Origin: Eudorina sp. 2006-703-Eu-15
Taxonomy: Eukaryota > Chlorophyta > Chlorophyceae > Chlamydomonadales > Volvocaceae
Direction: 5' to 3'
Assembly (NCBI GenBank): GCA_003117195.1
Contig: BDSI01000237.1
Location: forward strand, 1 to 64,000
Length of the DNA stretch: 64,000 nt
Shown piece by piece: positions 1 through 21,848 of this stretch; position 1 is the first letter of the stretch; the number at the start of each line of letters is the position of its first letter. The position numbers were made by a program, and so were the translations under genes. The notes below the pieces were generated by a model. That model saw only the letters and a program-made list of their open reading frames with translations, was not told the DNA's origin and did not search any database.

Positions 1-3000
1 GGGTGGGCGGCGCAGGCGACGGCGGCTGCGGGCTGGGCGGCGCAGGCGACGCGGGCTGCGGGGCGGCGCAGGCGACGGGGGCTGCGGGCTGGCGGCGCAG
101 GCGACGGCGGCTGCGGCTGGGCGGCGCAGGCGACGGCGGCTGCGGGCTGGGCGGCGCAGGCGAGGCGGCTGCGGCTGGGCGGCGCAGGCGACGGCGGCTG
201 CGGGCTGGGCGGCGCGGCGACGGCGGCTGCGGGCTGGGCGGCGCAGGCGACGGCGGCTGCGGGCTGGGCGGCAGGCGACGGCGGCTGCGGCTGGGCGGCG
301 CAGGCGACGGCGGCTGCGGGCTGGGGGCGCAGGCGACGGCGGCTGCGGGCTGGGCGGCGCAGGCGACGGCGGCTGCGGGCTGGGCGGCGCAGGCGACGGC
401 GGCTGCGGGCTGGGCGGCGCAGGCGACGGCGGCTCGGGCTGGGCGGCGCAGGCGACGGCGCTGCGGGTGGGCGGGCGCAGGCGACGGCGGCTGCGGCTGG
501 GCGGTCGGCGGGCAGGCGACCTGGCGGGGGGCGGCGCAGGCGACGGCTGGGCTGGGCGGTGCGGGCTGGGCGGCGCAGGCGACGGCGCGGCTCTGCGGGC
601 TGGCGGCGCTGAGCTGCGGCTGGCTGAGCGCACGGCGGCTGCGGGCTGGGCGCGCGCGACGGCGGCTGCGGGCTGGGCGCGCAGGCGACGGCGGGCTGGG
701 CGGCGCAGGCGACGCGGCTGGCTGCGGGCTGGGGCGGCGGCAGGCGACGGGCTGCGGCTGCGGCGCAGGCGACGGCGGCTCGGGCTGGGCGCGCAGGCGA
801 CGGCGGCTGCGGGCTGGGCGGCGCAGGCGACGGCGGCTGCGGCTGGGCGGCGCAGGCGACGGCGGCTGCGGCGGCGCAGGCGACGGCTGCGGCTGGCGGC
901 GCAGGCGACGGCGGCTGCGGGCTGGGCGGCGCAGGCGACGGCGGCTGCGGGCTGGGCGGCGCAGGCGACGGCGGCTGCGGGCTGGGCGGCGCAGGCGACG
1001 GCGGCGGGCTGGGCGGCGCAGGCGACGGCGGCTGCGGGCTGGCGGCGGCAGGCGACGGCGGCTGCGGGCTGGGCGGCGCAGGCGACGGCGGCTGCGGGCT
1101 GGCGGCGCAGGCGACGGCGGCTGCGGCTGGGCGGCGCAGGCGAGGCGGCTGCGGTGGGCGCGCAGGCGACGGCGGCTGCGGCTGGCGGCGCAGGCGACGG
1201 CGGCTGCGGGCTGGGCGGCGCAGGCGACGGCGGCTGCGGGCTGGGCGGCGCAGGCGACGGCGGCTGCGGCTGGGCGCGGCAGGCGACGGCGGCTGCGGCT
1301 GGCGGCGCGGCGACGGCGGCTGCGGGCGGCGCAGGCGACGGCGGCTGCGGGCTGGGCGGCGCAGGCGACGGGCTGCGGGCTGGCGCGCAGGCGACGGCGG
1401 CTGCGGGCTGGGCGGCGCAGGCGACGCGGCTGCGCTGGGCGCGCAGGCGACGGCGGCTGCGGGTGGGCGGCGCAGGCGACGGCGGCTGGGCGGGCTGGGC
1501 GGCGCAGGCGACGGCGGCTGCGGGCTGGGCGGCGCAGGCGACGGCGGCTGGGGCTGGGCGGCGCAGGCGACGGCGGCTGCGGGCTGGCGGCGCAGGCGAC
1601 GGCGGCTGCGGGCTGGGCCGGCGCAGGCGACGGCGGCTGCGGCTGGGCGGCGCAGGCGACGGCGGAGGCGGCGGCGCTGCGGCGGCGGCGCAGGCGACGG
1701 CGGCTGCGGGCTGGGCGGCGCAGGCGACGGCGGCTCGGGCGGCGGCAGGCGACGGCGGCTGCGGCTGGGCGGGCAGGCGGGCGGCTGCGGCTGGGCGGCG
1801 CAGGCGACGGCGGCTGCGGGCTGGGCGGCGCAGGCGACGGCGGGCGGGCTGGGCGGCGGGGCTGCACGGCGGCTGCGGGCTGGGGGCGCAGGCGACGGCG
1901 GCTGGGCTGGGCGGCGGCAGGCGACGGCGGCTGCGGCTGGGCGGCGCAGGCGACGGCGGCTGCGGGTGGGCGGCGGCAGGCGACGGCGGCTGCGGGCTGG
2001 GCGGCGCAGGCGACGGCGGCTGCGGGCTGGGCGGCGCAGGCGACGGCGGCTGCGGGCTGGGCGGCGCAGGCGGGCGGCTGCGGGCTGGGCGGCGCAGGCG
2101 ACGGCGGCTGGCGGGCTGGGCGGCGCAGGCGACGGCGGCTGCGGGCTGGGCGCGCAGGCGACGGCGGCTGCGGGCTGGGGCGCAGGCGCGACGGCGGCTG
2201 CGGGGCTGGCGGCGCAGGCGGGCGGCTGCGGGCTGGGCGGCGCAGGCGACGGCGGCTGGCGGTGGGCGGCGCAGGCGACGGCGGCTGCGGCTGGGCGGCG
2301 GGCGCGGGCGGCTGCGGGCTGGGCGGCGCAGGCGACGGCGGCTGCGGCTGGGCGCGCAGGCGACGGCGGCTGGCGGCTGGGCGGCGCGACGGCGAGGCGG
2401 CGCAGGCGACGGCGGCTGCGGGTGGGCGGCGCAGGCGACGGCGGCTGCGGGCTGGGCGGCGCAGGCGACGGGGCTGCGGGCTGGGCGGCGCAGGCGACGG
2501 CGGCTGCGGGCTGGGCGCGCAGGCGACGGGCTGCGGCTGGCGGCGCAGCGCGGGGCTGCGGGCTGGGCTGCGGGCTGGGCGGCGCAGGCGGCGGCTGGGG
2601 CTGGGCGGCGCAGGCGACGGCGGCTGCGGGCTGGGCGGCGCAGGCGACGGCGCTGCGGGCTGGGCGGCGCGGCGACGGCGGCTGCGGGCTGGGCGGCGCA
2701 GGCGACGGCTGCGGGCTGGGCGGCTGGGGCTGGGCTGGGCGGCGCAGGCGACGGCGGGCGGCGCAGGCGAGGCGGCTGAGGCGACGGCGGCTGCGGGCTG
2801 GGCGGCGCAGGCGGCGGCAGGCGACGGCGGGCGGGCTGGGCGCGCAGGCGACGGCGGCTGCGGCTGGGCGGCGCAGGCGACGGCGGCTGCGGGCTGGGCG
2901 GCGCAGGGCGACGGCGCTGGCGGGCTGGGCGGCGCAGGCGACGGCGGCTGCGGGCTGGGCGCGCAGGCGACGGCGGTGCGGCTGGGCGGCGCAGGCGACG

Positions 3001-5768
3001 GCGGCTGCGGGCTGGGCGGCTGCGGCTGGGCGGCGCAGGCGACGGCGGCTGCGGGCTGGGCGGGCGCAGGCGACGGCGGCTGGGGCTGGGCGGCGGCAGG
3101 CGACGGCGGCTGCGGGCTGGGCGGGCGCAGGCGACGGCGGCTGCGGGCTGGGCGGCGCAGGCGACGGCGGCTGCGGGCTGGCGGCGCAGGCGACGCGGCT
3201 GCGGGCTGGGCGGCGGGCGGCTGGGGCGGGCGGCGCAGGCGACGGCGGCTGCGGGCTGGGCGCGCAGGCGACGGCGCTGCGGCGCAGCGCGACGGCAGGC
3301 GACGGCGCTGCGGGCTGGCGCAGGCGACGGCTGCGGGCTGGGCGCGCAGGCGACGGCGGCTGCGGGCTGGGCGGCGCAGCGACGGCGGCTGCGGCTGGGG
3401 GCGCAGGCGGGCGGCTGCGGGCTGGGCGGCGCGGCGACGGCGGCTGCGGCTGGGCGGCGCAGGCGACGGCGGCTGCGGGCTGGGCGGCGCAGGCGACGGC
3501 GGCTGCGGGCTGGGCGGCGCAGGCGCGGCTGGGTGGGCGGCGCAGGCGACGGCGGCTGCGGGCTGGGCGGCGCAGGCGACGGCGGCGGGCTGGGCGGCGC
3601 AGGCGACGGCGGCGGGCTGGGCGGGCTGCGGGCTGGGCGGCGCAGGCGACGGCGGCTGCGGCTGGGCGGCGCAGGCGACGGCGGCTGGCGGGCTGGGCGG
3701 CGCAGGCGACGGCGGCTGCGGGCTGGGCGGCGCAGGCGAGGCGGCTGCGCGGCGACGGCGGCTGGGCTGGGCGGCGCAGGCGACGGCGGCTGCGGGCTGG
3801 GCGGCGCAGGCGACGGCGGCTGCGGGCTGGGCGGCGCAGGCGACGGCGGCTGAGGCGACGGCGGCTGCGGGCTGGGCGGCGCAGGCGAGGCGACGGCGGC
3901 TGCGGGCTGGCGGCTGCGGCTGCGGCGCGGCGCAGGCGACGGCGCTGCGGCTGGCGGCGCAGGCGACGGCGCTGGGCTGGCGCGCAGGCGACGGCGGCTG
4001 CGGGCTGGCGGCGCAGGCGACGGCGGCTGCGGCTGGGGCGCAGGCGACGGCGGTGCGGGCGCGCACGCGCGCTGGGCGGCGCAGGCGACGGCGGCTGCGG
4101 GCTGGGCGGCGCAGGCGACGGCGGCTGCGGGCTGGGCGGCGCAGGCGACGGCGGCTGCGGCTGGCGGCGCAGGCGACGGCGGCTCGGGTGGCGCGGCGGG
4201 GCGGCTGCGGGGGCGGCGCGGCGACGGCGGCTCTGGGCTGGCGCGCAGCGCAGGCGACGGCGGCTGCGGGCTGGGCGGCGCAGGCGACGGCGGCTGGTGG
4301 GCGGCGCAGGCGACGGCGCTGCGGCGCGGCGCAGCGCGCGGCGCGCATGCGCGGCGGCTGCGGGCGGCGCCAGGCGACGGCTCGGCTGCGGCACGAGGGG
4401 TGCGGGCTGGCGCGCAGGCGACGGGGGGGCTGGGGGGGGGGGCTGGGCGGCGCGGGGCGGTGCGGCGGCGGGCGGGCGAGGCGGCGCGGTGCGGGCTGGG
4501 CGGGCTGCGGGCTGGGCGGCGCAGGCGACGGCGGCTGCGGGCTGGGCGGCGCAGGCGACGCGGCTGCGGGCTGGGCGGCGCAGGCGACGGCGGCTGCGGG
4601 CTGGGCGGCGGCGACGGCGGCTGCGGGCTGGGGCGCAGGCGACGGGGGGGGGGGGGGGGGGGTGGGCGGGCGCAGGCGACGGCGGCTGCGGGCTGGCGGC
4701 GCAGCGACGGCGGCTGCGGGCTGGGCGGCGCAGGCGACGGCGGCTGCGGCTGGGCGGCCGCGCCGGCGACGGCGGCTGCGGGCTGGGCGGCGCAGGCGAC
4801 GCGGCTGCGGGCTGGGCGGCGCAGGCGACGGCGGCTGCGGGCTGGGCGGCGCAGGCGACGGCGGGCTGCGGGCTGGGCGGGCGCAGGCGACGGCGGCTGC
4901 GGGCTGGGCGGCGCAGGCGACGGCGCTGCGGCTGGGCGGCGCAGGCGACGGCGGCTGCGGGCTGGGCGCGCAGGCGACGGCGGCTGCGGGCTGGCGGCGC
5001 AGGCGACGGCGGCTGCGGGCTGGGCGGCGCAGGCGACGGCGGCTGCGGGCTGGGCGGCGCAGGCGACGGCGGCTGCGGGCTGGGCGGCGCAGGCGACGGC
5101 GGCTGCGGGCTGGGCGGCGCAGGCGACGGCGGCTGCGGGCTGGGCGGCGCAGGCGACGGCGGCTGCGGGCTGGGCGCGCGCAGGCGACGGCGGCTGGGGC
5201 TGGGCGGCGCAGGCGACGGCGGCTGCGGGCTGGGCGGCGCAGGCGACGGCGGCTGCGGGCTGGGCGGCGCAGGCGACGGCGGCTGCGGGCTGGGCGGCGC
5301 AGGCGACGGCGGCTGCGGGCTGGGCGGCGCAGGCGACGGCGGCTGCGGGCTGGGCGGCGCAGGCGACGGCGGCTGCGGGCTGGGCGGCGCAGGCGACGGC
5401 GGCTGCGGGCGGGGGGGGGGGGCTGGGCGGCGCAGGCGACGGCGGCTGCGGGCTGGGCGGCGCAGGCGACGGCGGCTGCGGGCTGGGCGGCGCAGGCGAC
5501 GGCGGCTGCGGGCTGGGCGGCGCAGGCGACGGCGGCTGCGGGCTGGGCGGCGCAGGTGACGGCGGCTCAGGGCTGGGCGGCACAGGCGACGGCGGCTGCG
5601 GGCTGGGCGGCGCAGGCGACGGCGGCTGCGGGCTGGGCGGCGCAGGCGACGGCGGCTGCGGGCTGGGCGGCGCAGGCGACGGCGGCTGCGGGCTGGGCGG
5701 CGCAGGCGACGGCGGCTGCGGGCTGGGCGGCGCAGGCGACGGCGGCTGCGGGCTGGGCGGCGCAGGCC
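1..5768 (-). repeat. Giant 30-bp tandem array encoding a pherophorin proline-rich hinge
   Basis: This is about 190 copies of a 30-bp unit. On the minus strand a perfect unit reads [10 protein letters not shown]. The last ~750 bp (about 5,010-5,768) are almost perfect, while the left 5 kb contain very many 1-3 base insertions and deletions. Poly-G runs sit near 4,424, 4,645 and 5,410. The same unit is found in frame in the hinge at 11,645-12,137, and the array joins directly onto a pherophorin domain end at 5,776, so it is the hinge of the gene described below. No single frame survives across it. Long stop-free frames on both strands are a by-product of the GC-rich unit. I infer that many indels are unpolished assembly error, but true degeneration is not excluded. 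Confidence 0.9.
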
Positions 5769-8700
5769 CAGTACTGCAAATGAAATCAGGTGTGCCCGGA
5801 CGAGGCACCGAAAAACTCCAAAGGCATGTGTTGGAGTCATCATCTGTTCCGCATCCTAAGAGGCGACTTTCTGAAGTTCTTGGATTTGAACATGTCGAGT
5901 TGACCCCTTGTAGACTGACATTGATAGGAGTTGCTTCTGCAATGGTATCGAACCCAAAGGTTTACGCAAGATTAATGCACATCGGTTTGGCTGTTCGGTA
6001 TGTTTCGCAGCCATGACATCGTATGCGGCAGGGCGGTGGCAGGCGGTTGGCCGCTGTGGCCCCACCCATGCATCCCCCCGTATACACACACGACGATTTG
6101 CTTGCAGGTGCGATAACAACGTTGTACGTTACTGACGCTAGTTATTTGCGACACTAATTATTTGCGAGGCCCGAATTAATTAATTTTTCATATTTGCGAC
6201 GCTAATTATTTGCGAGGCATCGGTCGGAGGCTTTCAGAAACGTTTAAAGTTTGCGACCTCGAGCGCCTTAACCAAAAGTTTGCGAGCCCGCATCGTTCAG
6301 TCCTGCGTCAATGAAGCGCGCCAGCCTTCCTCCGTTCCTCGCCCCGTGCAGCAGGGTGGCTATCTTAAGATATAAATATCTATTCGGCCGAAAAACTTCT
6401 GAAATTTTAGATACTTTTGGCCTGTCAAAACATGGAGTTTAAGATACTTTGACCCCTCGAGTTCGACATGATATCTTCCCGTTGACATATACTCGGACGA
6501 GTGATGGGGTCCCCGATATCTCCCACCCGGGGTCGGCTCTCGCCGTCTGCAGTCATCTATGGCTAGGTGTTGCACGTATGGGTTCGGTTACTGGAAGTTC
6601 TCCACCAATGTTGCGCCCTATCCGCTTCCCTCTGTAGATACTTCGGGCCGTTCCCAGTTGGAATTATGTCCCCATAGACAGATACTTTCAGCATTTCGAA
6701 GCCAGGTGTATCTCTAGCCGTAGATACTCCCAAAAATAAGATAGCCACCCTGCCGTGCAGTAGTCCGCGCGCCCTCCCACCCTCTGCCTGTGCCGCCCTT
6801 CCTGCCCGCCTGCCGCGGCCCCGTGCCGGCTGAGACGGGCCGTCCCCCATCGGCGCACCGGCGGCCGTCGCCGCCTCTCTTCGCCGACTACCCCGACCTG
6901 TCACATCCTCCATAGCCCCGGTCCCCATTCCGCGACGGCCACCATGCAACGACTGATATATTTTTTTAAGATTTGCGAGAAACGTTTGCGAGGCTTAGGG
7001 AGGACATTTTGGGGAACTGCAATTATTTTGTGCCCTTACGAGTTTTGTTTCGCACTTTGCGAGGTCCCCATTAATCAACTATTTTATTCGCAAATAATTG
7101 GCATCAGTACGGTATCGATGTGTGGCCAAGGCAGCCGACCCGCACCAGCTGGTAGTTTTCCGCAGCGATACCAGCCAAAAGCTCGCCAAAACGACAGCGT
7201 TCCTCCAACACCGCAGCCTTATTTACTCTATGGGTCGGGCAATGGGTATATTATATACGCATACGGGCAAGTTATGGGCGCTAATCGGCCCCTCACATGT
7301 CACGCACTCCTGCTCTGCCTGCCCGAGAACACACAAAGGCACGCAATGCCGACATTGCAAATAAAAAATAAAATAATAATAATAATAAATATAATAAAAT
7401 AATAATAATAATAACTATTAATACCGTAACGATATACTCTGGTCATGAGTAAGGGGGCAGGGGCGGTTATCAAGAGTAATAATAACAAGAAAACATAATA
7501 CGTGCGTACGCTAGGCAAACCCTAGCTGGGCAAACCCTAGCGTTGATTAAGGGGGCAGGGGCGGTGAGGCTTGCTGAGCCTACCGTGTACACCGTTCACA
7601 CCTGGGAGTCACCTCATCATTGTTATTGTTATTTGATATTGTGCACACACATAGTCACATACACAAACACACACTGTACCTTGGCGGCAGGGGCCACTGG
7701 TGTCCTTGACCGAGAAGTGCACCAGCTGAGCGCCCTGGTTGCTGCTGTTCCAGCGGGTCCATTGGCAGTAGCGGTCTGCGGGGGCACGGCCCAGCCGGGG
7801 GCTTCCCTGATATGCTGAACAACTGGCCACCTGCTGAACTCGGGCAGCTATTTGACAGCAAGCATACAATCAACCTATCTATCGTGTATGTAGTGTATGT
7901 AGCCAGCCATCTGATGGAGCCCCGGATGCGTGCAGCCATCTGACTACTGGGCCTGGCACTGGATGGCCGATAGATGGCTGCGAACCCAGCCCTAACGGTG
8001 TGCAGAAGTACATGCGGGAGCGAGTACGTGAGCCCCGGGAGGCCTTCCTAGCAACAACAGGAATCCGACTCGTCCGGAGCGAGCTCTCCACGCTCTCTTA
8101 GGCGTGCAGAGGCCCCGCCCCGCCCCGCCGCCCCGCCTAATGACCAGCACCATTGCGTGGGACATACACTCACTCGAGACACCGTCGCCCCACTGGTTCA
8201 ACAGTGACGTGTTTCCGGCGCTGGGCCTCGAGCCAGCCCGGGGCATCACACGGTACCCCAAGTCGCCCATGCACACGCTCTCCATGACGTCACTGCCGGG
8301 CTGCTTGGCACAGCCACTCCTCTGAGTGGTCCAATACACGCACACTTGGCAGTACAGCCACAAAGTCCGGCTAGTCCGGCTGCCGCCGATGTCCTCGTCG
8401 TCGTCTTCAGAGTCCTCGTACATCAATATGCAAGTACTGCTGTCCACAAACAGGTCCAGGCAGTTCGCCTGATGCGAGCACGCGTCCGTGCCGTTCTACA
8501 GCAGGAGACGAGGGCGAGGCAGGGTCGTGATAAAGGGACTTCCGCCTCACGAGGTGCGATGCGGAACTCAAGGTGGTCGCGGGGGAGCACGGGGCAAGGG
8601 CGGTGACTATTGAGGCAAAGGGAGCGAGCGAGGCGGGCGGGGATTGGCAGCGGGGAGCATGCATGAGGTAGGGTGAATTGCGCATGCTAGGCCGCGGGGC

Positions 8701-11700
8701 CCTAGATAGAGGTCCCGCATCATATATGCCCCCAGCAAGCAAGTACATGCAGTGGTACTTAAAGCTCTCCAATAAGTAAGCAGGAAACGTATATGCCACT
8801 ACTTCTCGTTAAAGCCCTCCCTGGAAATCAAGCCCCGACGCCCGCTATCTACGTACGTGCGTGTTCCATCAGCGCCAATGGTCGCTTGCTTATTGTAGCG
8901 ATCGAGCAGCGACCAATGGCGGTGACTGGATCAGCGCGCTCGGATGTCTGCCTCGATCGTCCAGGCTGCACTGTACCTTAATCTGACCGTGTACGTAAGA
9001 CGCAAAAGCTTGCTTACCAGCAGATGCTTGGGAACCCATTCGGGCTCCTTATGTTAAGAGCGTCGACGGTGCTACGACCTTACTTCGCTTCAGCAGCTGG
9101 TCGGCGCTGCAGCACCTCCCAGCAGACCCCCCTCCCCCTCCCCTTACTTGTGTGCCGCTGGTGTAGCCGTTGAGCACGCAGGGTGGCAGCGGCGGTGGCC
9201 TCGGAGGAACTGGAGGAACACGAGGCGGGCGGGGACTCGGAGGACCTGGGGAAGGAGGCCGAGTCTTTGGTGGAGATGGCACATACCGGAGCCGCGGGCT
9301 AGGCGGCGTCGGGGCAGGAGGCCGTCGTGTCGGGAAGGGCGGTCGGGGCGTCGGCGGAGACGGCGACGGAGGCTTGGGACTGGGCGGGGGTAAGGGGCTT
9401 GGAGGTCGCGAGGCTGGACGGCGGGGTCGTGGCGCTTGGGGGTAAGGGCTTGGCGGCTTGATCGGTGGCGATAGCCGCCGCTTACCAGGCGAGGGTGAGG
9501 AGGGCGCGGAGGGTCGGAGGGGGCTTGCGGGCTTACCAGGAGGGGGCGGACTCGGGGCAAGCGTCGGGGGCGGCCCCGTACATTGGAACTCGGGGGTCCC
9601 AGGCCTCGGCACGTTCAACGTCCAGAGGCACGCTCCAGGCAGGGCGCCATCATCGCAGCCCGCCAGAGACTCGTTTACCGTACGGGGTTCATCGCAGCTC
9701 GCCGTGATGCCCTGAAGGGTGACGTTGAAGGTACCCGATCCTGCGAGCGGTGGCATGGGGTGGCGTGGCATGTGGTGGCATGTATCACTAAGAAACAAAC
9801 CATGCATGCATGATGATTTGGCTTTTTTCGGGCAACATTGGTTCAGGCCCCACCACCACCCGCTTCGTTCCGGGGTTCGCACGCACTGGCATGCCATGAT
9901 ACATTCCATCCATGGGAATAACTACAGTGCGTGCGTTTCATGGTGAGCAGTGTTGCCCACTTGCCCGTGGCCCGAAGGAAGGTGCTCGATGGTGACAGAT
10001 GGCCGTTGGAACAGCGACGGCCGTGGATGCATGGCGAAACCCATCATACACGGGTTGCTTGCGTGTGCGTGTGAGAGCATCCTGCCTGGGCGGGATGTAA
10101 CAGAGATGAGAACATGTCTGCCAACTCCATCACACACATCTGCGACCCGCCCTCCAGAGACAGAAGCGCACACGTCGTACACCGTACCTTCACGACAGGT
10201 CCCGCTGCCGTCTTGGATGGTGAAGCGCACCACCTCCGTGCCGTAGTTACTGCTGTTCCAGCGGACCCACTGGCAGTAGCGATCTGCAAGTCGACGGGCG
10301 CGGAGGGCAGTACCATAGCTTGTTGCGGACGTGTAAGCAATGTATGCACGTACGCGCATATCGTCTCCACGGTTTTCGCTGTCCCTGCGGCCGTTCTCCG
10401 CCCTACCGCGACCTTATCCGCGCCGGATGCCCACCCCTCTTCCAGACTCTGTGCCCTCGTGTATGTTCCCCCGAACGCCGTTGCGCGGGGCGGGGCCTCC
10501 TCCGGTCACGCAATCGGTTTCGCGGTTTGGAGCAGAGGGTGCGAGATTTGAGTGGGCCCTGCGTGGCTGGGGCGCCCGGTCAGGGGGCAGCTGCGTGGGA
10601 TGGGCATTTTCACAGCGCATTTATTGTTACAGCGCATCAGTAGTGCAAGTGGCTGGGGGCTCCTCGGTCCGGCACCTCCGTTAAAAGGGTTAAATACACC
10701 CTAAAGCCTCAGCGGGCCGCCGGGCCCCCACCGACAAGGCGGCAAGCAAGGTACACCCACATACACCTCGCTCAACCCTACGTGTTATGGCAGGCCCGAG
10801 GTGCCCGATGCCCGATGTCACTCACTCTCCCTGCCCGTACTCCAGGAGCTCTCCGCGCTGGTGTTGCCCACGGTCGGCCGCCTGCCTCCATCCTCAATGA
10901 CCGGGAAGAAACGATCGCCGCTGCACACCCGGCTGTACGCCTCGTCCTCGGCCCTGTTGCAGCTCCCGTCGGCGGCGTCCCAGAAGACACAGACCTTGCA
11001 GTACAGCCACACCTGGCCGTACTCGCCATCCTGACTCTCATCGTCGCCGTACCCCTGTTCGTACATGTACTTGCAGGTGCCACTGTCAAAGTAAAGCTGA
11101 AGGCATTGCGCCTGGCTAAGGCAGCTGTCCAGAGGGCCCTGTATGTGTGTGGCGTGGATGGTATGGGGTTAGATTGAAAAAGGAATAAACCCGAAAGACA
11201 GGCCCAGGCACACCCAGAAAGAAATACCATGCTGGGGGGTATGGGGGGTCAGGAAGCCTTGCCAGCTGGAGAGATGATCAAGCTGGACAAAGCATGCGCT
11301 TCAACGTCGCCAACAGAGCTGGGCGCTGCTAGCTAGCGTACAGAGCGGACTTGCACCAGCACTGCAGAGTTGGGGGGAATCCTACGTGTGCCCTATATAA
11401 CGTATATGTGCAGTGGCGGTCAAGCTGGTGGCGATCAAAGCAGGCATAGCCACTTACATCTGGTACCACGACCCGGCCTTGACCAGAGTACAAGCATGAC
11501 GGAAGGGCCGGAGACAGGGGCCCGAGTGGAGGTGATGGAGGTGCCCTTGGGGGCTTTGGCTGGGGGCTGGGAGGCCTTGGTGAGGGTGGAAACGGTCTGG
11601 GAGGGGGCGGGCTCGGTGGCATCGGTGAGGGAGGGACTGGTGCAGGCGGCGCAGGCGACGGCGGCTGCGGGCTGGGCGGCGCAGGCGACGGCGGCTGCGG

Positions 11701-14700
11701 GCTGGGCGGCGCAGGCGACGGCGGCTGCGGGCTGGGCGGCGCAGGCGACGGCGGCTGCGGCCTGGGCGGCGCAGGCGACGGCGGCTGCGGCTGGGCGGCG
11801 CAGGCGACGGCGGCTGCGGGCTGGGCGGCGCAGGCGACGGCGGCTGCGGGCTGGGCGGCGCAGGCGACGGCGGCTGCGGGCTGGGCGGCGCAGGCGACGG
11901 CGGCTGCGGGCTGGGCGGCGCAGGCGACGGCGGCTGTGGGCTGGGCGGCGCAGGCGACGGCGGCTGCGGGCTGGGCGGCGCAGGCGACGGCGGCTGCGGG
12001 CTGGGCGGCGCAGGCGACGGCGGCTGCGGGCTGGGCGGTGCCGGATATGGCGGCTGCGGGCTGGGCGGCGCAGGCGACGGCGGCTGCGGGCTGGGCGGCG
12101 CAGGCGACCGCGGCTGCGGGCTGGGCGGAACAGGTAACGCGGAGAAGGGCACCGCGCTTTGCGGTGGTTGCAATGGAGGCGACGGAGAAGGTGGTGCCGG
12201 GCTCGGCGGTGGCGGTGATGGCGGTGATGGAGATGGCGGCGCAGGGCTCGGCGGCGGCGGCGACGGTGGGGACGGAGATGGTGGCGCAGGACTCGGCGGC
12301 GGCGGCGACGGAGGGGACGGAGATGGTGGCGCAGGGCTCGGCGGCGGCGGCGACGGCGGTGATGGAGATGGCGGCGCCGGGCTCGGCGGCGGCGGCGACG
12401 GCGGTAACGGAGATGGCGGCGTAGGGCTCGGCGGCGGCGGCGACGGTGGGGACGGAGATGGTGGCGCAGGGCTCGGCGGCGGCGGCGACGGAGGGGACGG
12501 AGATGGTGGCGCAGGGCTCGGCGGCGGCGGCGACGGCGGTGATGGAGATGGCGGCGCCGGGCTCGGCGGCGGCGGCGACGGCGGTAACGGAGATGGCGGC
12601 GCCGGGCTCGGCGGCGGCGGCGACGGTGGGGACGGAGATGGCGGCGCCGGGCTCGGCGGCGGCGGCGACGGCGGGGACGGAGATGGTGGCGCAGGACTCG
12701 GCGGCGGCGGCGACGGAGGGGACGGAGATGGCGGCGCCGGGCTCGGCGGCGGCGGCGACGGCGGTGATGGAGATGGCGGCACCGGGCTCGGCGGCGGCGG
12801 CGACGGTGGGGACGGTGATGGCGGCGCCGGGCTCGGCGGCGGCGGCGACGGCGGGGACGGAGATGGCGGAGCCGGGCTCGGCGGCGGCGGCGACGGCGGG
12901 GACGGAGATGGCGGCGCCGGGCTCGGCGGCGGCGTTGATGGCGGCGGTGGTGCTGATGAGCAGAGGCTGGGGCGCGGCACGTTGAAGCTCCACAGGCACT
13001 CGTTTGACTGGGATCCGGTGTCGCAGCCGGCCAGTGTGCCGTTGACAGTACGCGGATTCTCGCAGGTCCCCGAAATGCCCTGGAAGACGACGCCCAACGT
13101 ATCGTTACCTGCATCAGGAAGGACATGGTCGAGGCGTGCAAGGGTGTCAGCTCCGCAGTGGCTCCGTCGCAACGACAGATGCTAACGTGTGAGTTGATAA
13201 CAGACATCAGGACGACAGTGCTGAAAATACTGACGTTGGAGCCCTGACAAATGCCAGCGCAACCAAGCGGATAATAATTTTGAAAGGAGAGATGCATGGA
13301 TTCAAACAGCATAAAAATAACTACAGCATTTTCCTCAGCAGCAATTAAATATGCTGCTTTGAATGAATGAACGTTACAGCGGACCCCTGAAGGATCACCT
13401 GCTTTGTTCGGAAGCGAACCCTAGCCCATCCCCTGGATAGCTGGCCACCCACCAGGCCGGCAGGAACCACTGCCGTCCTTGACGGTGAAGCGCGCCACCT
13501 CCGTGCCGTAGTTACTGCTGTTCCAGCGGACCCACTGGCAGTAGCGGTCTGCGGGTGGCCAAAAAACAGCGAACGAAAGATCGCATGTATACCCAGGACA
13601 CCGACCTCCGACACCGACACCACCGACACCGGCACGAGCGCGCGCGTTCTGCAGCAGCCGCCGGCCGGCCATGGCGGCACGGCGCAAATGTGCGTGCTCG
13701 CTCAAGGCATGCCTGCCTGCATGCCTGCATTATTCCCGGCTCGTGGATCAATTCGATGCAGCAGGGCATTGCTTGCTTCCCAACCGACCCATCCCGAACG
13801 ACTCATTCCATAAAAGTTGCAGCGGACTGTATGTACGTTATATCTTTCCACACCCGTACGTTACATATTTCCACACCCTGTGCGTCATGTAATTCCACGC
13901 CCTGTCCGTTACATATATATTTCCACTTACTGTTGATGCCCTCGCCCCAACCCGAGCGCTTGTACGTGTTGCCCACTACCGGGTCGCCGCCCGAGCTGGC
14001 GATGACCGGGAAGAACTCGTCCGCCATGCACACGTGGCTCAGCGTGTCCGGCGCAGACTTGAGGCACGTGCCGCGCGCGTTGTTCCAGTACAAGCAGACC
14101 TGGCAGTACAACCATGTCGTACTGGCGCCCGCCACGTACGAGCACATCCGGCCGTCCATGTACAGGTCCAGACAGCCCGACTGGTCCACGCAGGTCTCCA
14201 GACCAAACTGCGGAAGACGGGGAGGTTGGGAGATAGGTGAGCGAAGGAAATTCATCGGGGCCCAGAAGGGGCCCGGCCCGGGCAGCTGCTGAGTAGGCGC
14301 ATTGTGTGTGTGTGTGTGTGTGTTACATGGTTGGGGGTGCGTAACCCCATACCTGCACATACCCATACGAGCCGGAGGCCCAAGGGCAAACAAAACGCCC
14401 AAAAGCACTGGTTTGCAATACCGCATTAACAGGAGTCGACGAGACTAGCGCCCAAAGGGCACGATAGAATTACGGTGAGCCCACATGCGCTCCAACATCT
14501 TTGCCAAACGAGCCGGATCCCAGGCAATCGCCTCCCTCATCGTATTAGGGCGGTGAAACCCTTCCTCAGCGCGTATTGCATCGTAAGCCGGGCAGGCGCA
14601 TTGATTCGGACGAAAGCAAGTTAATCTTATTATTAGCTTGATAATATTGATGATAATAATCATGAATATGATTATGATGATAATATGCTGTCACCGGTGG

Positions 14701-17503
14701 CCCACCGTTCGGGCAAACCGGAAAGCCGGCTGCGGGTGACATCACTGCCCCCAGCTCGCTCCCTTGACCATCTCAATTAATTTTACTTGATTTAAATCTC
14801 AATTCATTTATATTTATTTATTATAAAAAGAGTTAGAATAATGCTGAATGAATGAACGTTATAAAATAATGTTGTTGTAACGATAATGTTAATTATTTAT
14901 GAAAAGAGTAATTTTGAAACAGTTGTTACGTAGACGTACTACGATAACGGGCAGCATATTGATCTGCAATTGGGTATGGAGCTGTGCACCCCACCTTAGG
15001 GTTCCCGGTGTCATTCTGGCTGTAGTTGGCCGGGTTACTGTACGCACAGAGCGCGTTCGGTTGGGGGAAGGGGCTCGGTGGAAGGGGGGACTGGCCGACA
15101 GGTTGAGGTGACGGGGGTGTCAGATTTGGCGGAGGTGGCGGTGGGGGCGGAGTCGGAGGTGGTGGCGACGGTGGACTTGGGCTGGGAGGTTTTGGCGATG
15201 GCGGAGGCGGTGGGCTTGGCGGCGGACTGGGGGGCGGGGGAGGGGGCGGAGATGGAGATGGCGGAAGGGGAGACGGTGGCAAAGGCGGGGGCGGCGGCGG
15301 GCTGGGGGGTGCCGGTGGTGGCGGAGGCGGTGGAGATGGCGGAGGCGGAGGCGGTGGCGGGGAAGGTGGCGGTGGGCTTGGCGGCTTGGGTGGAGGCGAC
15401 GGAGGCGCAGGGGGAGGCGGCTTCGGGCTTGGGGGCGGTGGAGGTGGCGATGGAGGCGGAGATGGCGGGAGGGGCGGCGGTGGCGAAGGTGGCGGCGACG
15501 GGGGCGAAGGCGGGGGCGGCTTCGGGCTTGGGGGCGGGGGAGGTGGCGAAGGGGGCGGCGGGGGCGGCGGGGGCGGAGATGGCGGGGGCGGCGGAAACGG
15601 CGGCGGTGGGCTCGGCGGCTTGGGCGGAGGCGAAGGGGGTGACGGCGGGGGGGCCTGGACGGCGGTGGGGGTGGTCGAGGCGGTGGAGACGGCGGCAAGG
15701 GAGGCGGTGGAGGAGGCCGAGGCGGTGGGCTCGGCGGTTTGGGTGGCGGTGACGGCGGCGGTGGCCGAGGCGGCGGAGATGGAGGCGTGGGAGGCGGGGG
15801 CTTGGTCGGGGGGCTTGGGCTCGGCGGCTTTGATGGAGGTGGAGGTGGCGGAGGCGCGGGTGGCGACGGCCCACATTTGAAGTCGGGGGTCCCGGGGCGC
15901 GGCACGTTCAAGGTCCACAGGCACTCGTTGACCTGATCCCCAGTTCCGCAGCCCGCCAGCGTCCCGTTCACCACTCGCGGGTTCTGGCAGGTGGCTGAGA
16001 TGCCTTGCAGCGTGACCGACAGCGCGTCCGAGGCTGTACGGCAAAACACGTAGAGCGGCGGCGGCGGCGGTGATGCGTTATACAATGGCAAGGGCGCAAC
16101 TGCGCGGCCTGAGATCTGTGCGGCACACATGTTCGCTAGCACGGCGTACGATGAATTACCTAAGCGATGACACTATTAATATTTCACAACAATATAACAA
16201 TAGTAATATGTTGCTACGCAAGATAAACCCTGCCGTGGATGAAGGGGGCAGGGACGCAGCTGCCACCAAGGTACGACAGTATGCGAGTACGACATCCGTA
16301 GCGCACGCCACGTAGACATTCCCGTCCCCGACCAACTACTTGTTGCCTCGCATTTTGGCCCCACCTACCCTCCCTGCACCAGCCGCTGCCGTCCTTGACG
16401 GTGAAGCGCACCACCTCCGTGCCGTAGTTGCTGCTGTTCCAGCGGACCCACTGGCAGTAGCGGTCTGCGGGTGGGGAGGAGAATGGACGTCAGCAAGGGC
16501 CCAAAGACTAAGGGAGAAGCACGTGCCTCGAATACCGGAATACCCAGTCCCCAGGAGCTGGCCGCGTGGCCGGTCGACACAGTCCGCAACACCGAAATAT
16601 CCAAGCCAGTAAGGCTGCAGCATGGCAAACCCGGGGCAGAGCCTTTACCCTCGCGGTTGCTTCTCGACCGCCTGACAGTACAAATATTTTCACTGATACC
16701 ATAGTAACATATTTTATCTATCATTATCATTGGCTCTCTGTATTTTTTGTTCGCGGCGTTGCATGCTGGGGCTTGCCTTGGTATACGGGGTCCGCTGTAA
16801 CGTTTATAAATTCATTCATTATCATCATTAAATTATTATTTATTTTATATTTAATTGTATCAACGTCCCGCGAGGGGGCACTTACTGCTGACGCCGTCGT
16901 TCCAGCGCCCAAGCTTCTGTGTGTCACCGACAACCGGCGGGTACCCCGCGCCGCCGATGAGCGGGTAGAACTCATCGCCGCTGCACACGTGGCTGATGGA
17001 GTCAGTCAGCGCCTTGGCGCATGTGCCCCGGTCGTTGCTCCAGTACAGGCAGACCTGGCAGTAGAGCCAGGTGGTGGCGTTGCCTGCCGCGGTCAAGCAG
17101 GTGGAGCTGTCCATAAACACGTCCAAGCAGCCCGCCTGGTCCGAGCACGACTCGATGCCGTTCTGCGCCACGTCATCAGAGTGCGGCAGCGGGTTTGTTT
17201 AGGATGAGGCCATGAGGATTCCAGATCAGGGATGCGGCATGAAGGGTTGGATCCGGGATGGAGGCGCGGTTGGATCCGGGATGAGCGGTTGGAACAAGAA
17301 CTTCAAATCAGGACCTGAGATGCGAACCGATCCCCTGTACCGCATCTTCCTGTGCCAGACCTCCCACCTTGGGACTGCCCAGTGTCATGTTGGTGTAGTT
17401 CCCAGGGTTGGAATACACGCAGTTTCCGCCCGGCGGCGCCGGAGGGGGTGCCAGCTGCTGCGGGCTGGGTGGCGCAGGTGACGGCGGATTGGGGCTGGGC
17501 GAG

Positions 17504-17540
<37 letters not shown>

Positions 17541-20189
17541 GCCGGGGCGCGGGAGGCGGGATCATGCTCGCCGGCATCGGTGGATTGGAGGTCGGCGGCG
17601 ACGGCCCACATTTGAAGTCGGGGGTCCCGGGGCGCGGCACGTTCAAGGTCCACAGGCACTCGTTGACCTGATCCCCGGTGTCGCAGCCTGCCAGCGTACC
17701 GTTGATCACCCGGGGGTTCTGGCAGGTGGCTGAGATGCCTTGCAGCGTGACCGACAGCGCGTCCGTTTCTGCGGGGATCACATGTGTTCGCGGCATTGAG
17801 CTGTGGAGGTGTCTTGCCGCCTTGTCGGTGGGGCCTGCTGGGGCTTGCCCTGGTATGCACCGTTGATCCTTTTTGGGGCCCGCTGTAACGTTCGTCCATT
17901 CATATGCATGCACACCGAGTCAATGATTTGCGGCGGCAAGGACAGATCATCATGGGCCCACTGTAAAATAGTCATTAATGAAATCATTCAGTCCAAAAAG
18001 CAAGCAACCGGCGCTACGGCAGCGCATGGTATCCGTACTCACGGGACACGCCGGGAACCGACCCCTCCAAGCTCGGCACGCTGCGCGGCGCTGCGTCCCG
18101 TGTGTACGTACGAGAACGGCGCCGCTGTCTGGGTGCGAAGCATGGAGCTGCGTCGGGAACGCCGCTCCGTCCGCCCACCCTTACTTGGTACACACGCACG
18201 GACTTCTGGTCCGAGGATCGATGGCGCGCTGTAACTTTCACTTTTCATCCATTCACACAATGCATTAGCTAGGTAGCCCTGCGTGCCTGGCGAGCCACCG
18301 CTTCTTCACGCCGCGGCGGAGGCCCCAAAAGATGACCTCCCTGCGCGTTCCGCGCCCGTTACGGCGCGACCCTCGTCGTACCTGTAAGGCAGGCTCCGGA
18401 GCCGTCCTTGACTGAGAACCGCACGGGCTCAGGGTCGAAGTTGCTGCTGTTCCAGCGGACCAGCTGGCAGTAGCGGTCTGCGGGCAGGGGGATCGGAGGT
18501 CAATGGCGCCACTACTTACCTAGGCCAAAGGACAAGGTTCATCACCACGCGTACATGGGCGCGTGCCGTGACGCCAAGTAGTGGGAGCCGGTACCTGCCA
18601 AGAAGCCAACGGCCCAGTACACGGCTCCACGGCCGTGACGCAGCATCCCGTCTGACTGGCGAATCGTGGCCATAGCACACCCTTTCGCCCCTAATCAGTT
18701 TTCATATACACAAATTGCATGCCTGCTGATACGCAATGGTTTTTTTTGCACTTTCGCGCGACTGCATACCCATCAGGGTCTTTCTGGACTGCGTCCGCAC
18801 ACTTTGAACTCTCACACTCCGCAGGGCAGTATCTAGAACCTCCGGCAGCTGTCTGGCCGAGCATTCAGCACATCCGGCTTGCATCTGGCACATCCGGCTT
18901 GCATGCGCCTATCGCATACGATGACCCCGGCCCCCCGCTTACTGGCCACGCCGTCGTTCCAGCCGGACTGTTTGTAGGTGCTGCCTAGCTGTGGTGCGGT
19001 GCCCGGGTCCGCGGGGATCACCGGGTAGAACTCGTCACCCATACACACGTGGCTGACGGTGTCCGTGGTGGCCTTTGCGCAGTTGCCCCGGTCGTTGCTC
19101 CAGAAGATGCAAACCTGGCAGTAGAGCCAGGTGGTGTCCACTCCAACCAACGTCTCGCACGTCCCGGAATCTAGAAAGATGTCCAGGCAGTTGGATTGGT
19201 CTTCACAGGATTCCATCCCGTTCTGCCGTACCGGGGGTCACGTGGGGTTGCGCAGTATTTGAATGGGCAAGTGGCAGGGCGGGGCGGGGCGGGGCGGGGC
19301 GGGGCGATTTAAACGCCACATAAATGCCGCCTCGCACTTCCGACGGATTACGGTTAGTTGCGAAACGAATGGCACACGATCGATGCAGTACGGCACAGTA
19401 CGGGATGGGCCTTGAGAACGGGTGGCAGAAGACATGTGGCTCATAGGCGGCCCATGCGGATTCATTTATGATTGTGCGTTTGTGCAGTTTGGGTAATCTA
19501 ATTGGGTATGTGCAACAGTGGAGCTGATTCGCCCTGAATACAGCGAGCCGTAGAAGTTGGGACATTCAACACCCACAGCACGCGAGCAGCATCGCAAGTC
19601 GCTCGTGAAACGCACTCCAGCAACCATTCAAAGATTATACCTGCGGACTGCTAGGAAGGGGCGCGCTATAATTCGCCGGATCCGAGTACACGCAATTCGG
19701 AATGACCGGCGTGTAGTTGGGGTCCGGGGATGGTGGCGGCGGTGGCCTAGGGGGCGACAGCGTCGTCGGCGGTGGAGACAGAGCTGGTGGTGGTGGAGAC
19801 GTCGCAGTAGTCAACGAAAAGATGTCACCGACGAGGCCACCGAGGAGGCCCGTGAGACGGCGACGACTCGCATCGGCATGGCTCCCTGCGGTTGGTTGGA
19901 AATACCCCGAAATCTGTTGAGCCCCGTTTCATAGATAAAATGATAATTCATGCGGTTCTCTTCCTTTCTTGAATAAAGAGCCGCGTGGGCATGTCCGTGG
20001 AAGCAAGCGCGCCGACGCAACATCCCGTCTGGTTTCTCCTCCCTCACCGGGATCGCTCTCCGAAGCAATTCCGTCAGCATTTTCTTTGATTGCTGCATAT
20101 CCATTTTGTAGAAGTGCCAAAGCTAAGACCAGGCCGAGCCGAACAGGCCGGCCGGTCGTCGTGAAGGCGCGACGACCGGCAGAGCCCAT
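1..20189 (-). CDS. Multi-domain pherophorin (secreted extracellular-matrix glycoprotein), partial at its 3' end
   Basis: Pherophorins are secreted, hydroxyproline-rich matrix proteins of volvocine algae, usually two globular domains joined by one proline-rich rod. I read 17 exons on the minus strand: 20189-20048, 19885-19641, 19222-18943, 18477-18382, 17768-17368, 17162-16886, 16464-16369, 16033-14995, 14207-13931, 13548-13453, 13108-11458, 11138-10826, 10283-10188, 9740-9148, 8495-8174, 7775-7680 and 5936 to beyond base 1. Every junction has GT/AG ends and a matching phase, once two 1-base indels (15,647-15,653 and about 11,789) are allowed. The result is a signal peptide followed by at least five pherophorin domains with hinges between them. 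No stop codon, start exon or signal peptide interrupts the series, so one gene is the simplest reading. The alternative is a tandem array of separate two-domain genes whose ends I failed to see. The C-terminus lies outside the window. Confidence 0.75.
6132..7107. mobile_element. Non-autonomous DNA transposon (MITE) with TA target duplication and TTTGCGA subterminal repeats
   Basis: The left end reads CTGACGCTAGTTATTTGCGA. The reverse complement of the right end reads CTGATGCCAATTATTTGCGA (17 of 20 identical). Both ends are flanked by TA. The motif TTTGCGA recurs several times just inside both ends, for example near 6,145-6,290 and 6,970-7,060. No transposase is present. A TA duplication fits a Tc1/mariner-like origin, which is inference. 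The element is interrupted by a second MITE and sits in intron 16 of the pherophorin gene. Confidence 0.6.
6352..6752. mobile_element. hAT-type MITE (401 bp) with perfect 8-bp target-site duplication
   Basis: The terminal inverted repeats are CAGGGTGGCTATCTTA at the left and its reverse complement TAAGATAGCCACCCTG at the right. Both ends are flanked by CCGTGCAG (6,344-6,351 and 6,753-6,760). An 8-bp duplication and a CAGGG terminus are hallmarks of the hAT superfamily. It has no coding capacity. It is inserted inside the larger MITE, so it is the younger insertion. A truncated relative lies at about 27,165-27,257. Confidence 0.85.
7363..7432. repeat. AT-rich AAT microsatellite in pherophorin intron 16
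   Basis: A run of AAT/AATA repeats, strikingly AT-rich against the GC-rich surroundings. A doubled GCAAACCCTAGC motif follows near 7,516-7,542. Confidence 0.8.
9580..11496 (-). other. Pherophorin domain 4 (exons 11-14)
   Basis: This starts at [13 protein letters not shown]. Exon 12 (11138-10826, 313 nt) encodes [17 protein letters not shown], an acidic insert ([13 protein letters not shown]) absent from domains 1-3, then [11 protein letters not shown]. Exon 13 (10283-10188) encodes [18 protein letters not shown]. Exon 14 ends the domain at [17 protein letters not shown]. The following hinge is of mixed basic composition ([18 protein letters not shown]), less regular than the others. Confidence 0.82.
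11645..12137 (-). repeat. 30-bp hinge repeat ([10 protein letters not shown]) within pherophorin exon 11
   Basis: About 16 copies of the same 30-bp unit that makes up the array at the left edge. At about 11,789 one unit has lost a G (GCGGCTGGGC for GCGGGCTGGGC), which shifts the reading frame of everything downstream. Confidence 0.9.
12150..12945 (-). repeat. 45-bp hinge repeat (15-residue [15 protein letters not shown] type) within pherophorin exon 11
   Basis: About 17 copies of a 45-bp unit on the minus strand, differing by scattered synonymous or single-base changes. The frame stays open throughout. This is a different hinge design from the adjacent 30-bp repeat in the same exon. Confidence 0.85.
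12960..15048 (-). other. Pherophorin domain 3 (exons 8-11)
   Basis: The domain begins at [11 protein letters not shown] in exon 8. Exon 9 (14207-13931) encodes [17 protein letters not shown] and [10 protein letters not shown]. Exon 10 (13548-13453) encodes [18 protein letters not shown]. Exon 11 opens with [12 protein letters not shown] and ends the domain at [14 protein letters not shown], replacing the usual PGTPDFKC. The intron between exons 8 and 9 carries a reverse-oriented LINE fragment and AT-rich sequence. The downstream hinge is long, with about seventeen 15-residue repeats ([15 protein letters not shown] type) and then about sixteen [10 protein letters not shown] repeats. Confidence 0.85.
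14330..14595 (-). mobile_element. 5'-truncated LINE copy (3' end only), in a pherophorin intron
   Basis: In reverse orientation this 266-bp piece matches the last ~265 bp of the LINE at 23,767-24,030 with no difference that I can see by eye. It covers the last ~48 codons (ending RNSIVPFGR) and the 3' untranslated region down to GGGGTTACGCACCCCCAAC. Severe 5' truncation is the normal outcome of LINE insertion. The near-identity argues for recent activity. It lies between exons 8 and 9 and does not touch coding sequence. Confidence 0.85.
15873..17421 (-). other. Pherophorin domain 2 (exons 5-8)
   Basis: This starts with [11 protein letters not shown] at the end of exon 5, continues through exon 6 ([29 protein letters not shown]) and exon 7 ([18 protein letters not shown]), and finishes in exon 8 ([20 protein letters not shown]). 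Exons 6 and 7 are 277 and 96 nt, nearly the same as in domains 1 and 3. The downstream hinge, about 275 residues of PPSP and PPPP repeats, carries the frameshift at 15,647-15,653. Confidence 0.85.
17806..17895. repeat. Dispersed short repeat (GTTACAGCGGACCCC family), copy in a pherophorin intron
   Basis: Minus-strand copy, just downstream of the acceptor side of exon 5's intron: GGCGGCAAGACACCTCC at one side and GCCCGCTGTAACGTTCGTCC at the other. It may be a SINE or MITE. No terminal inverted repeats or poly-A are evident. Confidence 0.65.
19277..19306. repeat. GGGGC tandem repeat in pherophorin intron 2
   Basis: Five to six consecutive GGGGC units, a potential G-quadruplex, located between exons 2 and 3. 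Confidence 0.75.
19641..20189 (-). other. Pherophorin exons 1-2: signal peptide, Arg-rich pro-segment, first short hinge
   Basis: Exon 1 (20189-20048) begins with ATG and encodes a basic N-terminus followed by a hydrophobic core ([10 protein letters not shown]), a typical secretory signal. It ends at a GTGAGG donor in phase 1. The acceptor GCAG before 19885 restores the frame exactly. Exon 2 then reads [15 protein letters not shown], a run of proline-rich sequence (PPPPPSPDP), and [11 protein letters not shown], the start of pherophorin domain 1. The RRRL stretch resembles processing sites common after algal signal peptides, which is inference. The donor is CAG|GTATAA at 19640. The start choice rests on the signal peptide and the phase match. 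Confidence 0.7.
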
Positions 20190-21669: not shown

Positions 21670-21848
21670 TCAATTTTGAAAGCCCGGCAGTACGGCCGGT
21701 TCCATAACCGTCCTTTTGGACTGTTGCCCGATTACTGCATCACGGGTTCAATACGTAGCAACTAGGGGCGGTTAAGGAAATACGCTTGTTAAATCTATCG
21801 GTTTGACATGACCAGCTGCTGGCTTGCAGCGGACTTGAGGGCACCTCC

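What the first reader, a model, noticed from the sequence alone, without database searches (positions are those of the whole stretch)
1..20189. A single pherophorin gene with at least five tandem pherophorin domains and a giant hinge
Seventeen minus-strand exons join in phase from a signal-peptide exon through five complete pherophorin domains, each followed by its own proline-rich hinge, with no stop, new start or signal peptide between them. Published pherophorins normally have two domains and one rod. A beads-on-a-string version would be a new architecture for algal extracellular matrix.
Basis: partly seen in the sequence, partly recalled or inferred. Interest (0 to 1): 0.9.

Follow-up and report, generated by a model that had tools for sequence, protein, structure and literature searches.

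The report
Giant membrane-anchored algal matrix protein gene
The window holds the first half of a very large green-algal gene whose repeated domains are not pherophorin domains but another, unnamed cysteine-rich kind; the second half, found on another contig, most likely ends in a membrane anchor, so the protein may tie the cell to its surrounding matrix.

Summary
The exon chain is real: 17 exons on the minus strand, 16 GT-AG introns, from a leader exon at 20189 to base 1, carrying five domains of 192-204 aa, each followed by a proline-rich hinge. Three claims fail. (1) The domains are not pherophorin (DUF3707) domains: no profile sees them as such, and six of 22 relatives carry both kinds side by side. 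(2) The frame is broken once in hinge 2, giving a stop near 15120, and once in hinge 3; a leader-like in-frame ATG lies at 14426. I read the breaks as assembly errors. (3) Base 1 is a contig end, and most of the giant hinge looks like unpolished repeat. All 109 exact copies of a 44-mer of that repeat lie on four contigs. One, C196, begins with the repeat and continues with two more domains, a 657-aa ectodomain, one transmembrane helix and a 430-aa tail. Relatives occur in Volvox, Pleodorina and Astrephomene. Best reading: one giant single-pass membrane protein linking cell and matrix; the contig join and the function are inferred.

The parts
20048..20189 (-). exon E1: start codon and hydrophobic leader (putative signal peptide)
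   Evidence: exon model; hydropathy peak (KD19 1.54)
19641..19885 (-). exon E2: short proline-rich stretch and first residues of domain 1
   Evidence: first 135 aa align with Volvox P0003 at 34% over 102 aa, E 6e-6
18943..19222 (-). exon A1 (domain 1)
18382..18477 (-). exon B1 (domain 1), 96 bp
17368..17768 (-). exon C1: end of domain 1, hinge 1 (62 aa), start of domain 2; frame intact
16886..17162 (-). exon A2 (domain 2)
16369..16464 (-). exon B2 (domain 2), 96 bp
14995..16033 (-). exon C2: end of domain 2, hinge 2 (about 270 aa in the joined model), start of domain 3; single frame break near 15650 beside a run of C, entry-frame stop near 15120
13931..14207 (-). exon A3 (domain 3)
13453..13548 (-). 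exon B3 (domain 3), 96 bp
11458..13108 (-). exon C3: end of domain 3, hinge 3 (about 483 aa in the joined model), start of domain 4; single frame break near 11795
10826..11138 (-). exon A4 (domain 4)
10188..10283 (-). exon B4 (domain 4), 96 bp
9148..9740 (-). exon C4: end of domain 4, hinge 4 (133 aa), start of domain 5; frame intact
8174..8495 (-). exon A5 (domain 5)
7680..7775 (-). exon B5 (domain 5), 96 bp
1..5936 (-). exon C5: end of domain 5 and the 30-bp array ([10 protein letters not shown] in the coding frame) running off the contig; sequence largely unpolished
14208..14426 (-). rival feature: in-frame ATG with leader-like stretch, open into exon A3

Best explanation
The locus is the 5' half of one gene of a volvocine green alga. 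The gene encodes a giant single-pass (type I) membrane protein: leader, five cysteine-rich domains on proline-rich hinges, a very long PPSPX rod, two more cysteine-rich domains, a 657-aa ectodomain ('X'), one transmembrane helix and a 430-aa cytoplasmic tail. The 3' half lies on contig C196; the repeat array between them broke the assembly. Inferred mechanism: the protein goes to the surface and is held there by the helix; the rod, presumably hydroxylated and glycosylated, spans part of the matrix; the 14-cysteine domains bind matrix partners at several points; the tail couples this to the inside. It would act as a cell-matrix tether and perhaps a tension sensor. Shown by sequence: exon chain, domain repeats, helix, tail shared with Pleodorina. 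Inferred: the contig join, secretion, hydroxylation, ligand binding, sensing.
For: Exon chain with consistent phases in each module. Neighbouring domains share hinge exons, so splitting the gene would cut domains. All 109 exact 44-mer matches in 181 Mb lie on C237 (41), C196 (9) and two all-array contigs, C1303 (16) and C2499 (43); by the listing, 33 of C237's are in the terminal array and 8 in hinge 3, 6 of C196's in its opening array and 3 in hinge 6, so both contigs use the unit in a second hinge too, and the two terminal arrays face each other in fitting orientation. C196 gives 1795 residues and a stop over 15 exons from domain 6 on, all introns GT-AG, no internal stop. The highest hydropathy is the helix (KD19 2.39); the leader has 1.54. 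X is 58% identical to Pleodorina P0001 and 42% to Astrephomene P0002; the tail is 42% identical to P0001 up to the last residue. The fifth Volvox P0003 domain groups with window D5 (96/90), the fourth with D4 (84/79, weaker). Volvox fragment P0013 shows a last domain leading to the start of X, and that domain groups with P0003's first three (95/99).
Against: No transcript or read was available. The join of C237 and C196 rests on a shared array, not on a spanning sequence, and no homologue found covers leader to helix; the one large hit is P0005, a different architecture (that query stretch was only the end of D4 and most of D5, so the miss is weak evidence). Two hinges have frame breaks and one entry-frame stop. 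An alternative in-frame start lies before domain 3. Two further hydropathy peaks (1.44, 1.56) lie in X. The tail is clearly shared only with P0001: P0002 gives 34 aa at E 0.011, P0005 and P0010 nothing below E 1. UniRef names for P0003, P0004 and P0012 say 'Pherophorin domain-containing'. The structure models are too weak to name a fold.
Confidence: 0.68

Rival explanations
1. Two or more neighbouring genes: D1-D2 ends at the stop in hinge 2 (near 15120), and a second gene starts at 14426 with its own leader; or C237 and C196 hold separate genes that share a hinge repeat.
For: Entry-frame stop in C2; ATG with leader-like stretch at 14426 open into A3, found in 30 of 2000 shuffles of that intron; a two-domain product would look like ordinary volvocine hydroxyproline-rich proteins; no spanning homologue.
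Against: After the break the exit frame of C2 stays 70-85% proline for about 500 bases and ends in the conserved start of domain 3 at a GT donor; a start at 14426 would lose the invariant first cysteine. Volvox P0003 predicts five domains in one protein. About 0.1 such leaders are expected by chance over the five introns. All exact 44-mers are on these four contigs.
Confidence: 0.2
2. A true pherophorin with at least five DUF3707 domains, as first read.
For: Proline-rich hinges of the same style; UniRef labels on some relatives. The Pfam scan is not a perfect negative: it missed truncated DUF3707 ends in P0014 and P0017 that my own profile finds.
Against: No Pfam match at E 0.1 in 7 of 7 domains; my own DUF3707 profile with all filters off finds its family in 6 of 22 relatives, truncated ones included, but scores the 7 window domains at -1.6 bits or less; hhalign probability 0.0 with both controls at 100%; the 6 relatives with DUF3707 (P0008, P0009, P0011, P0014, P0017, P0022) carry the window-type domain in a separate place.
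Confidence: 0.04
3. A decaying gene or an assembly artefact: frame breaks are real, the array is a collapse or chimaera.
For: Two broken hinges of eight resolved ones between domains (C1-C4, C6 and three in the C55 paralogue); noisy array.
Against: No stop in the A, B or X exons of the models; X shared with two species and the tail with one; the breaks sit in C-rich repeats, where long-read errors are expected (inference).
Confidence: 0.08

Closest known systems
Pherophorins (PF12499/DUF3707), e.g. Volvox SSG185, pherophorin II
   Same: Cysteine-rich globular domains, proline/hydroxyproline-rich hinge, volvocine algae
   Different: Different domain family; seven domains, not two; mean hydroxyproline-rich domain 89 aa in V. 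carteri and 181 aa in C. reinhardtii (PMC9818292, passages read) against a hinge 3 of about 483 aa and an array of kilobases; membrane anchor
Uncharacterised relatives: VOLCADRAFT_96399 (P0003), Pleodorina PLESTB_001352700 (P0001), Astrephomene Agub_g7 (P0002)
   Same: Same domain; P0001 and P0002 also share X and have a helix after it; P0001 shares the tail
   Different: The models are partial; none shows leader to tail in one protein. In P0003 the first three domains follow each other without a hinge
C. incerta P0010 and two loci on C58 of this genome
   Same: X ectodomain; P0010 and the first C58 locus also show a transmembrane helix
   Different: No cysteine-rich domain array was found with them
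Yeast Wsc1/Mid2 wall sensors
   Same: Works like: single-pass protein with a long glycosylated ectodomain, described as a nano-scale spring (PMC6704257, passages read)
   Different: No sequence relation tested or claimed; size and domains differ

Membership tests
Pherophorin (PF12499) | DUF3707 domain detected by profile | tested here: not met
   0 of 7 domains at E<=0.1 in Pfam; hhalign probability 0.0; own profile, filters off, -1.6 bits or less in 7 of 7
Pherophorin (PF12499) | Two globular domains separated by one hydroxyproline-rich rod | tested here: not met
   Five domains in the window, seven with C196
Pherophorin (PF12499) | Proline-rich, presumably hydroxylated hinge | tested here: met
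   Proline 0.4-0.85 per 20 codons in the open frame along most of hinges 2 and 3; hydroxylation not testable
CQWVRW cysteine-rich domain family (name mine) | Conserved cysteines and CQ..R motif over about 196 aa | tested here: met
   13 invariant and one nearly invariant cysteine in 15 of the 22 domain pieces I had; profile hits in 21 of 22 relatives
X-type single-pass membrane protein family (name mine) | X ectodomain followed by one transmembrane helix and a tail | tested here: met
   On C196, not in the window; membership of the window gene depends on the contig join
Plasma-membrane matrix receptor | Binds matrix outside and signals inside | not testable with these tools
   Needs experiments

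The most novel reading that the evidence does not exclude
A micrometre-scale membrane tether and tension sensor of volvocine algae: a single-pass protein with seven binding cysteine-rich domains and one PPSPX rod of more than 5,000 residues (if the 16,129-bp all-array contig C1303 is faithful, about 5,376 residues, about 1.7 micrometres as a polyproline II helix), reporting matrix state through its tail.
Probability: 0.25. Interest if true: 0.82.

Novelty: new variant of a known kind. Interest (0 to 1): 0.62.

Why it matters
How volvocine cells hold on to, and sense, their hydroxyproline-rich matrix is open: a 2019 paper on Chlamydomonas wall-integrity signalling lists only candidate sensors (PMC6704257, passages read). 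A single-pass protein with matrix-style hinges outside and a tail inside is a concrete candidate that can be tagged or removed in laboratory strains of volvocine algae. It also warns that 'proline-rich hinge plus cysteine-rich domain' is not enough to call a gene a pherophorin.

Tried and rejected
Rejected: pherophorin identity. Rejected: C196 as the 3' half of the C55 paralogue, because the C55 stretch I hold has none of the 44-mers and a different unit of about 90 bp, its domains lie elsewhere in the tree, and its hinge exons run into the next domain without the intron seen in C237 and C196. Led nowhere: PDB sequence searches (best E 1.5 for one domain; 0.18 for the profile; none at E 1 for a DUF3707 domain); NCBIfam (best E 0.065, far below cut-offs); structure of a Gonium domain protein P0012 (mean pLDDT 59, all-beta; Foldseek no match at E<=0.001, best 7e-3 with TM 0.14); structure of P0010 (pLDDT 39, not searched further); an internal duplication of X (hhalign E 0.02, probability 2%), left open. 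Below-cut-off Pfam hits: Big_9 (bacterial Ig) touches a stretch of about 25 residues in P0002, P0003, P0004 and P0005 (E 8.9, 7.6e-4, 0.046, 0.0081; cut-off 23.6 bits, best 20.8) and DNA_pol_B_exo2 in P0003 (E 3.3e-4, 20.8 of 24 bits); not followed up. Species not identified. One search scored only the 7988 candidates sharing most words of a proline-rich query and may have missed relatives.

Literature: searches at listing level (open-access library only); passages seen in PMC9818292, PMC4844696, PMC6313938, PMC6704257, PMC12377771. I saw no description of this protein there; that does not show that none exists.

Full report
WHAT IS THERE. The window is the first 64 kb of contig C237 of a 181.2-Mb, 3033-contig genome, so base 1 is a contig end. 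On the minus strand I could place 17 exons from an ATG at 20189 to base 1; all 16 introns are GT-AG, the phases counted in each module's own frame repeat as 0 (hinge to A), 1 (A to B), 1 (B to C), and all five B exons are 96 bp. Each C exon holds the last part of one domain, a proline-rich hinge, and the first residues of the next domain. The tandem order is therefore fixed inside exons, which is stronger than an argument from introns.

WHERE THE FINDING FAILS. Exons C2 and C3 are each one base off the module's phase. Proline content per frame shows a single switch near 15650 and one near 11795, and the entry frame of C2 ends at a stop near 15120. The intron before domain 3 has an ATG at 14426 with a leader-like stretch, open in frame for 73 codons into exon A3; shuffles of that intron give such a start 30 times in 2000, and over the five hinge-to-A introns about 0.1 would be expected. 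I still favour one gene: the exit frame of C2 stays 70-85% proline for about 500 bases and that of C3 about 60%, and both run into the conserved domain start with its invariant first cysteine. Of eight resolved hinges between domains, six are in frame: C1, C4, C6 and three of the C55 paralogue. The giant hinge is a 30-bp array whose unit has no stop in any of the six frames. It matches the unit at 0.96-0.98 over its first 1 kb, then at 0.83-0.95 per 500 bp, with 379 deletions against 99 insertions overall; hinge 3, in the same unit, is at 0.97 with no insertion and 2 deletions. I take most of it as unpolished read sequence.

THE DOMAIN IS NOT A PHEROPHORIN DOMAIN. hmmscan of the seven domains and the C-terminal part against Pfam: 0 families at E 0.1. 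That scan is not a perfect negative: it missed truncated DUF3707 ends in P0014 and P0017. I therefore used my own DUF3707 profile (12 domains) with all filters off: it finds its family in 6 of 22 returned proteins (P0008, P0009, P0011 in full length; P0014, P0017, P0022 truncated), and scores the 7 window domains at -1.6 bits or less; the profile of the window-type domain hits 21 of 22 proteins (all but P0010), including those six in a separate place, and scores the 12 DUF3707 domains at 1.1 bits or less. Pfam itself puts DUF3707 at 978-1131 of P0008 and 855-1009 of P0009; the window-type matches there are 468-924 and 363-803. hhalign of 21 window-type domains against the 12 DUF3707 domains: probability 0.0 over six columns; controls within each family 100%. 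In the own-genome search with PF12499 no listed match lies on C237 or C196 (166 matches, list cut, 150 of 335 candidates scored). Fifteen of my 22 domain pieces, aligned, show 13 invariant cysteines and one nearly invariant. Against this stands the UniRef wording 'Pherophorin domain-containing' for P0003, P0004 and P0012, whose basis I could not see. A shared fold is not excluded: the only domain model is weak.

THE OTHER HALF. A 44-mer of the array occurs 109 times in the genome: C237 41, C196 9, C1303 16, C2499 43, which accounts for all. C1303 (16,129 bp) and C2499 (11,696 bp) are array throughout by base composition (GC 0.85-0.87 per 500 bp). C196 starts with 5.4 kb of array on its plus strand, then carries domains 6 and 7 (with their introns a recent duplication, 94.5% over 1.3 kb), a short hinge, and nine further exons to a stop at C196:16028; from domain 6 to the stop there are 1795 residues and no internal stop. 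This part contains a 657-aa ectodomain X, a helix (KD19 2.39; weaker peaks of 1.44 and 1.56 within X) and a 430-aa tail. X is 58% identical to Pleodorina P0001 and 42% to Astrephomene P0002, and 28% to C. incerta P0010; the tail is 42% identical to P0001 to the very end, but matches P0002 only over 34 aa at E 0.011 and P0005 and P0010 not below E 1. RRx[ST] motifs occur 3, 4 and 4 times in the tails of C196, P0001 and P0002 (53, 9 and 20 of 5000 residue shuffles reach this) and 0 times in P0005 and P0010.

RELATIVES. One search gave 11 proteins, search 2 only P0005, search 3 another 11, all under 350 aa. P0003 (Volvox) has five domain matches, some partial; P0004 (Edaphochlamys) five matches making about four domains; P0002, P0005 and P0006 two each. 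In a tree of 30 domains the fifth Volvox domain joins window D5 (96/90) and the fourth joins D4 (84/79, below the strong mark). D6 and D7 pair, as do the two Astrephomene domains; the other three Volvox domains cluster with P0013, the Volvox fragment that leads into X; D1-D3 are unresolved. In the genome itself the domain was found on six contigs (38 exon matches with D2 as query). A second tandem gene on C55 has four domains, its own leader-like start and a different array to the contig end; another contig, C490 (24,778 bp), bears that array, and the 2600 bases of it that I read were array. X occurs again twice on C58; the first of these shows a helix.

MECHANISM. Shown by sequence: leader, repeats, hinges on C237; repeats, X, helix and tail on C196. 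Inferred: the join, secretion, hydroxylation and glycosylation of the rods, binding by the cysteine-rich domains, and coupling through the tail. The nearest functional analogy that I read is the yeast Wsc1/Mid2 nano-spring, discussed in PMC6704257 next to candidate algal wall sensors (passages). Rod length: 16,129 bp would be about 5,376 residues; at 0.31 nm a residue (recalled) about 1.7 micrometres. The array stretches could overlap, so the true length is not known.

VERDICT. Real and more than ordinary, but misnamed and only half seen. My odds: domain not DUF3707 about 0.95; one gene over D1-D5 about 0.8; join to C196 about 0.8; membrane-anchored protein as a whole 0.68.

Noticed in passing
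G000:C55:776892-796939 (L028-L030): A second tandem-domain gene with its own leader-like start, four domains and an array of about 11 kb to the contig end; its array unit differs, and the 24,778-bp contig C490 carries the same unit.
   Followed up: partly
G000:C58:102680-123000 (L035-L037): Two loci with the X ectodomain but no cysteine-rich domain hits; the first shows a transmembrane helix.
   Followed up: partly
G000:C226:76777-81574: A PF12499 match lies next to window-type domain matches, so both domain kinds may meet in one gene of this genome, as in C. incerta P0008.
   Followed up: no
L021:5000-8460 (C196): Domains 6 and 7 with their introns are a recent segmental duplication, 94.5% identical over 1.3 kb.
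   Followed up: partly
C196:14739-16028 (L022): Repeated RRVT-SG-like motifs in the cytoplasmic tail, similar ones in Pleodorina and Astrephomene; they resemble basophilic kinase sites (recalled), untested.
   Followed up: partly
window 21807-23045, plus: Reverse transcriptase ORF (PF00078, E 1.9e-22) upstream of the gene's start.
   Followed up: no
window 45512-46720, plus: ORF with an ERCC4 nuclease-domain match (PF02732, E 2.2e-12).
   Followed up: no
window 5937-7679, minus: The B5-C5 intron is 1743 bp, more than twice the next longest (787 bp), and holds short AT-rich repeats; its origin is unexplained.
   Followed up: no
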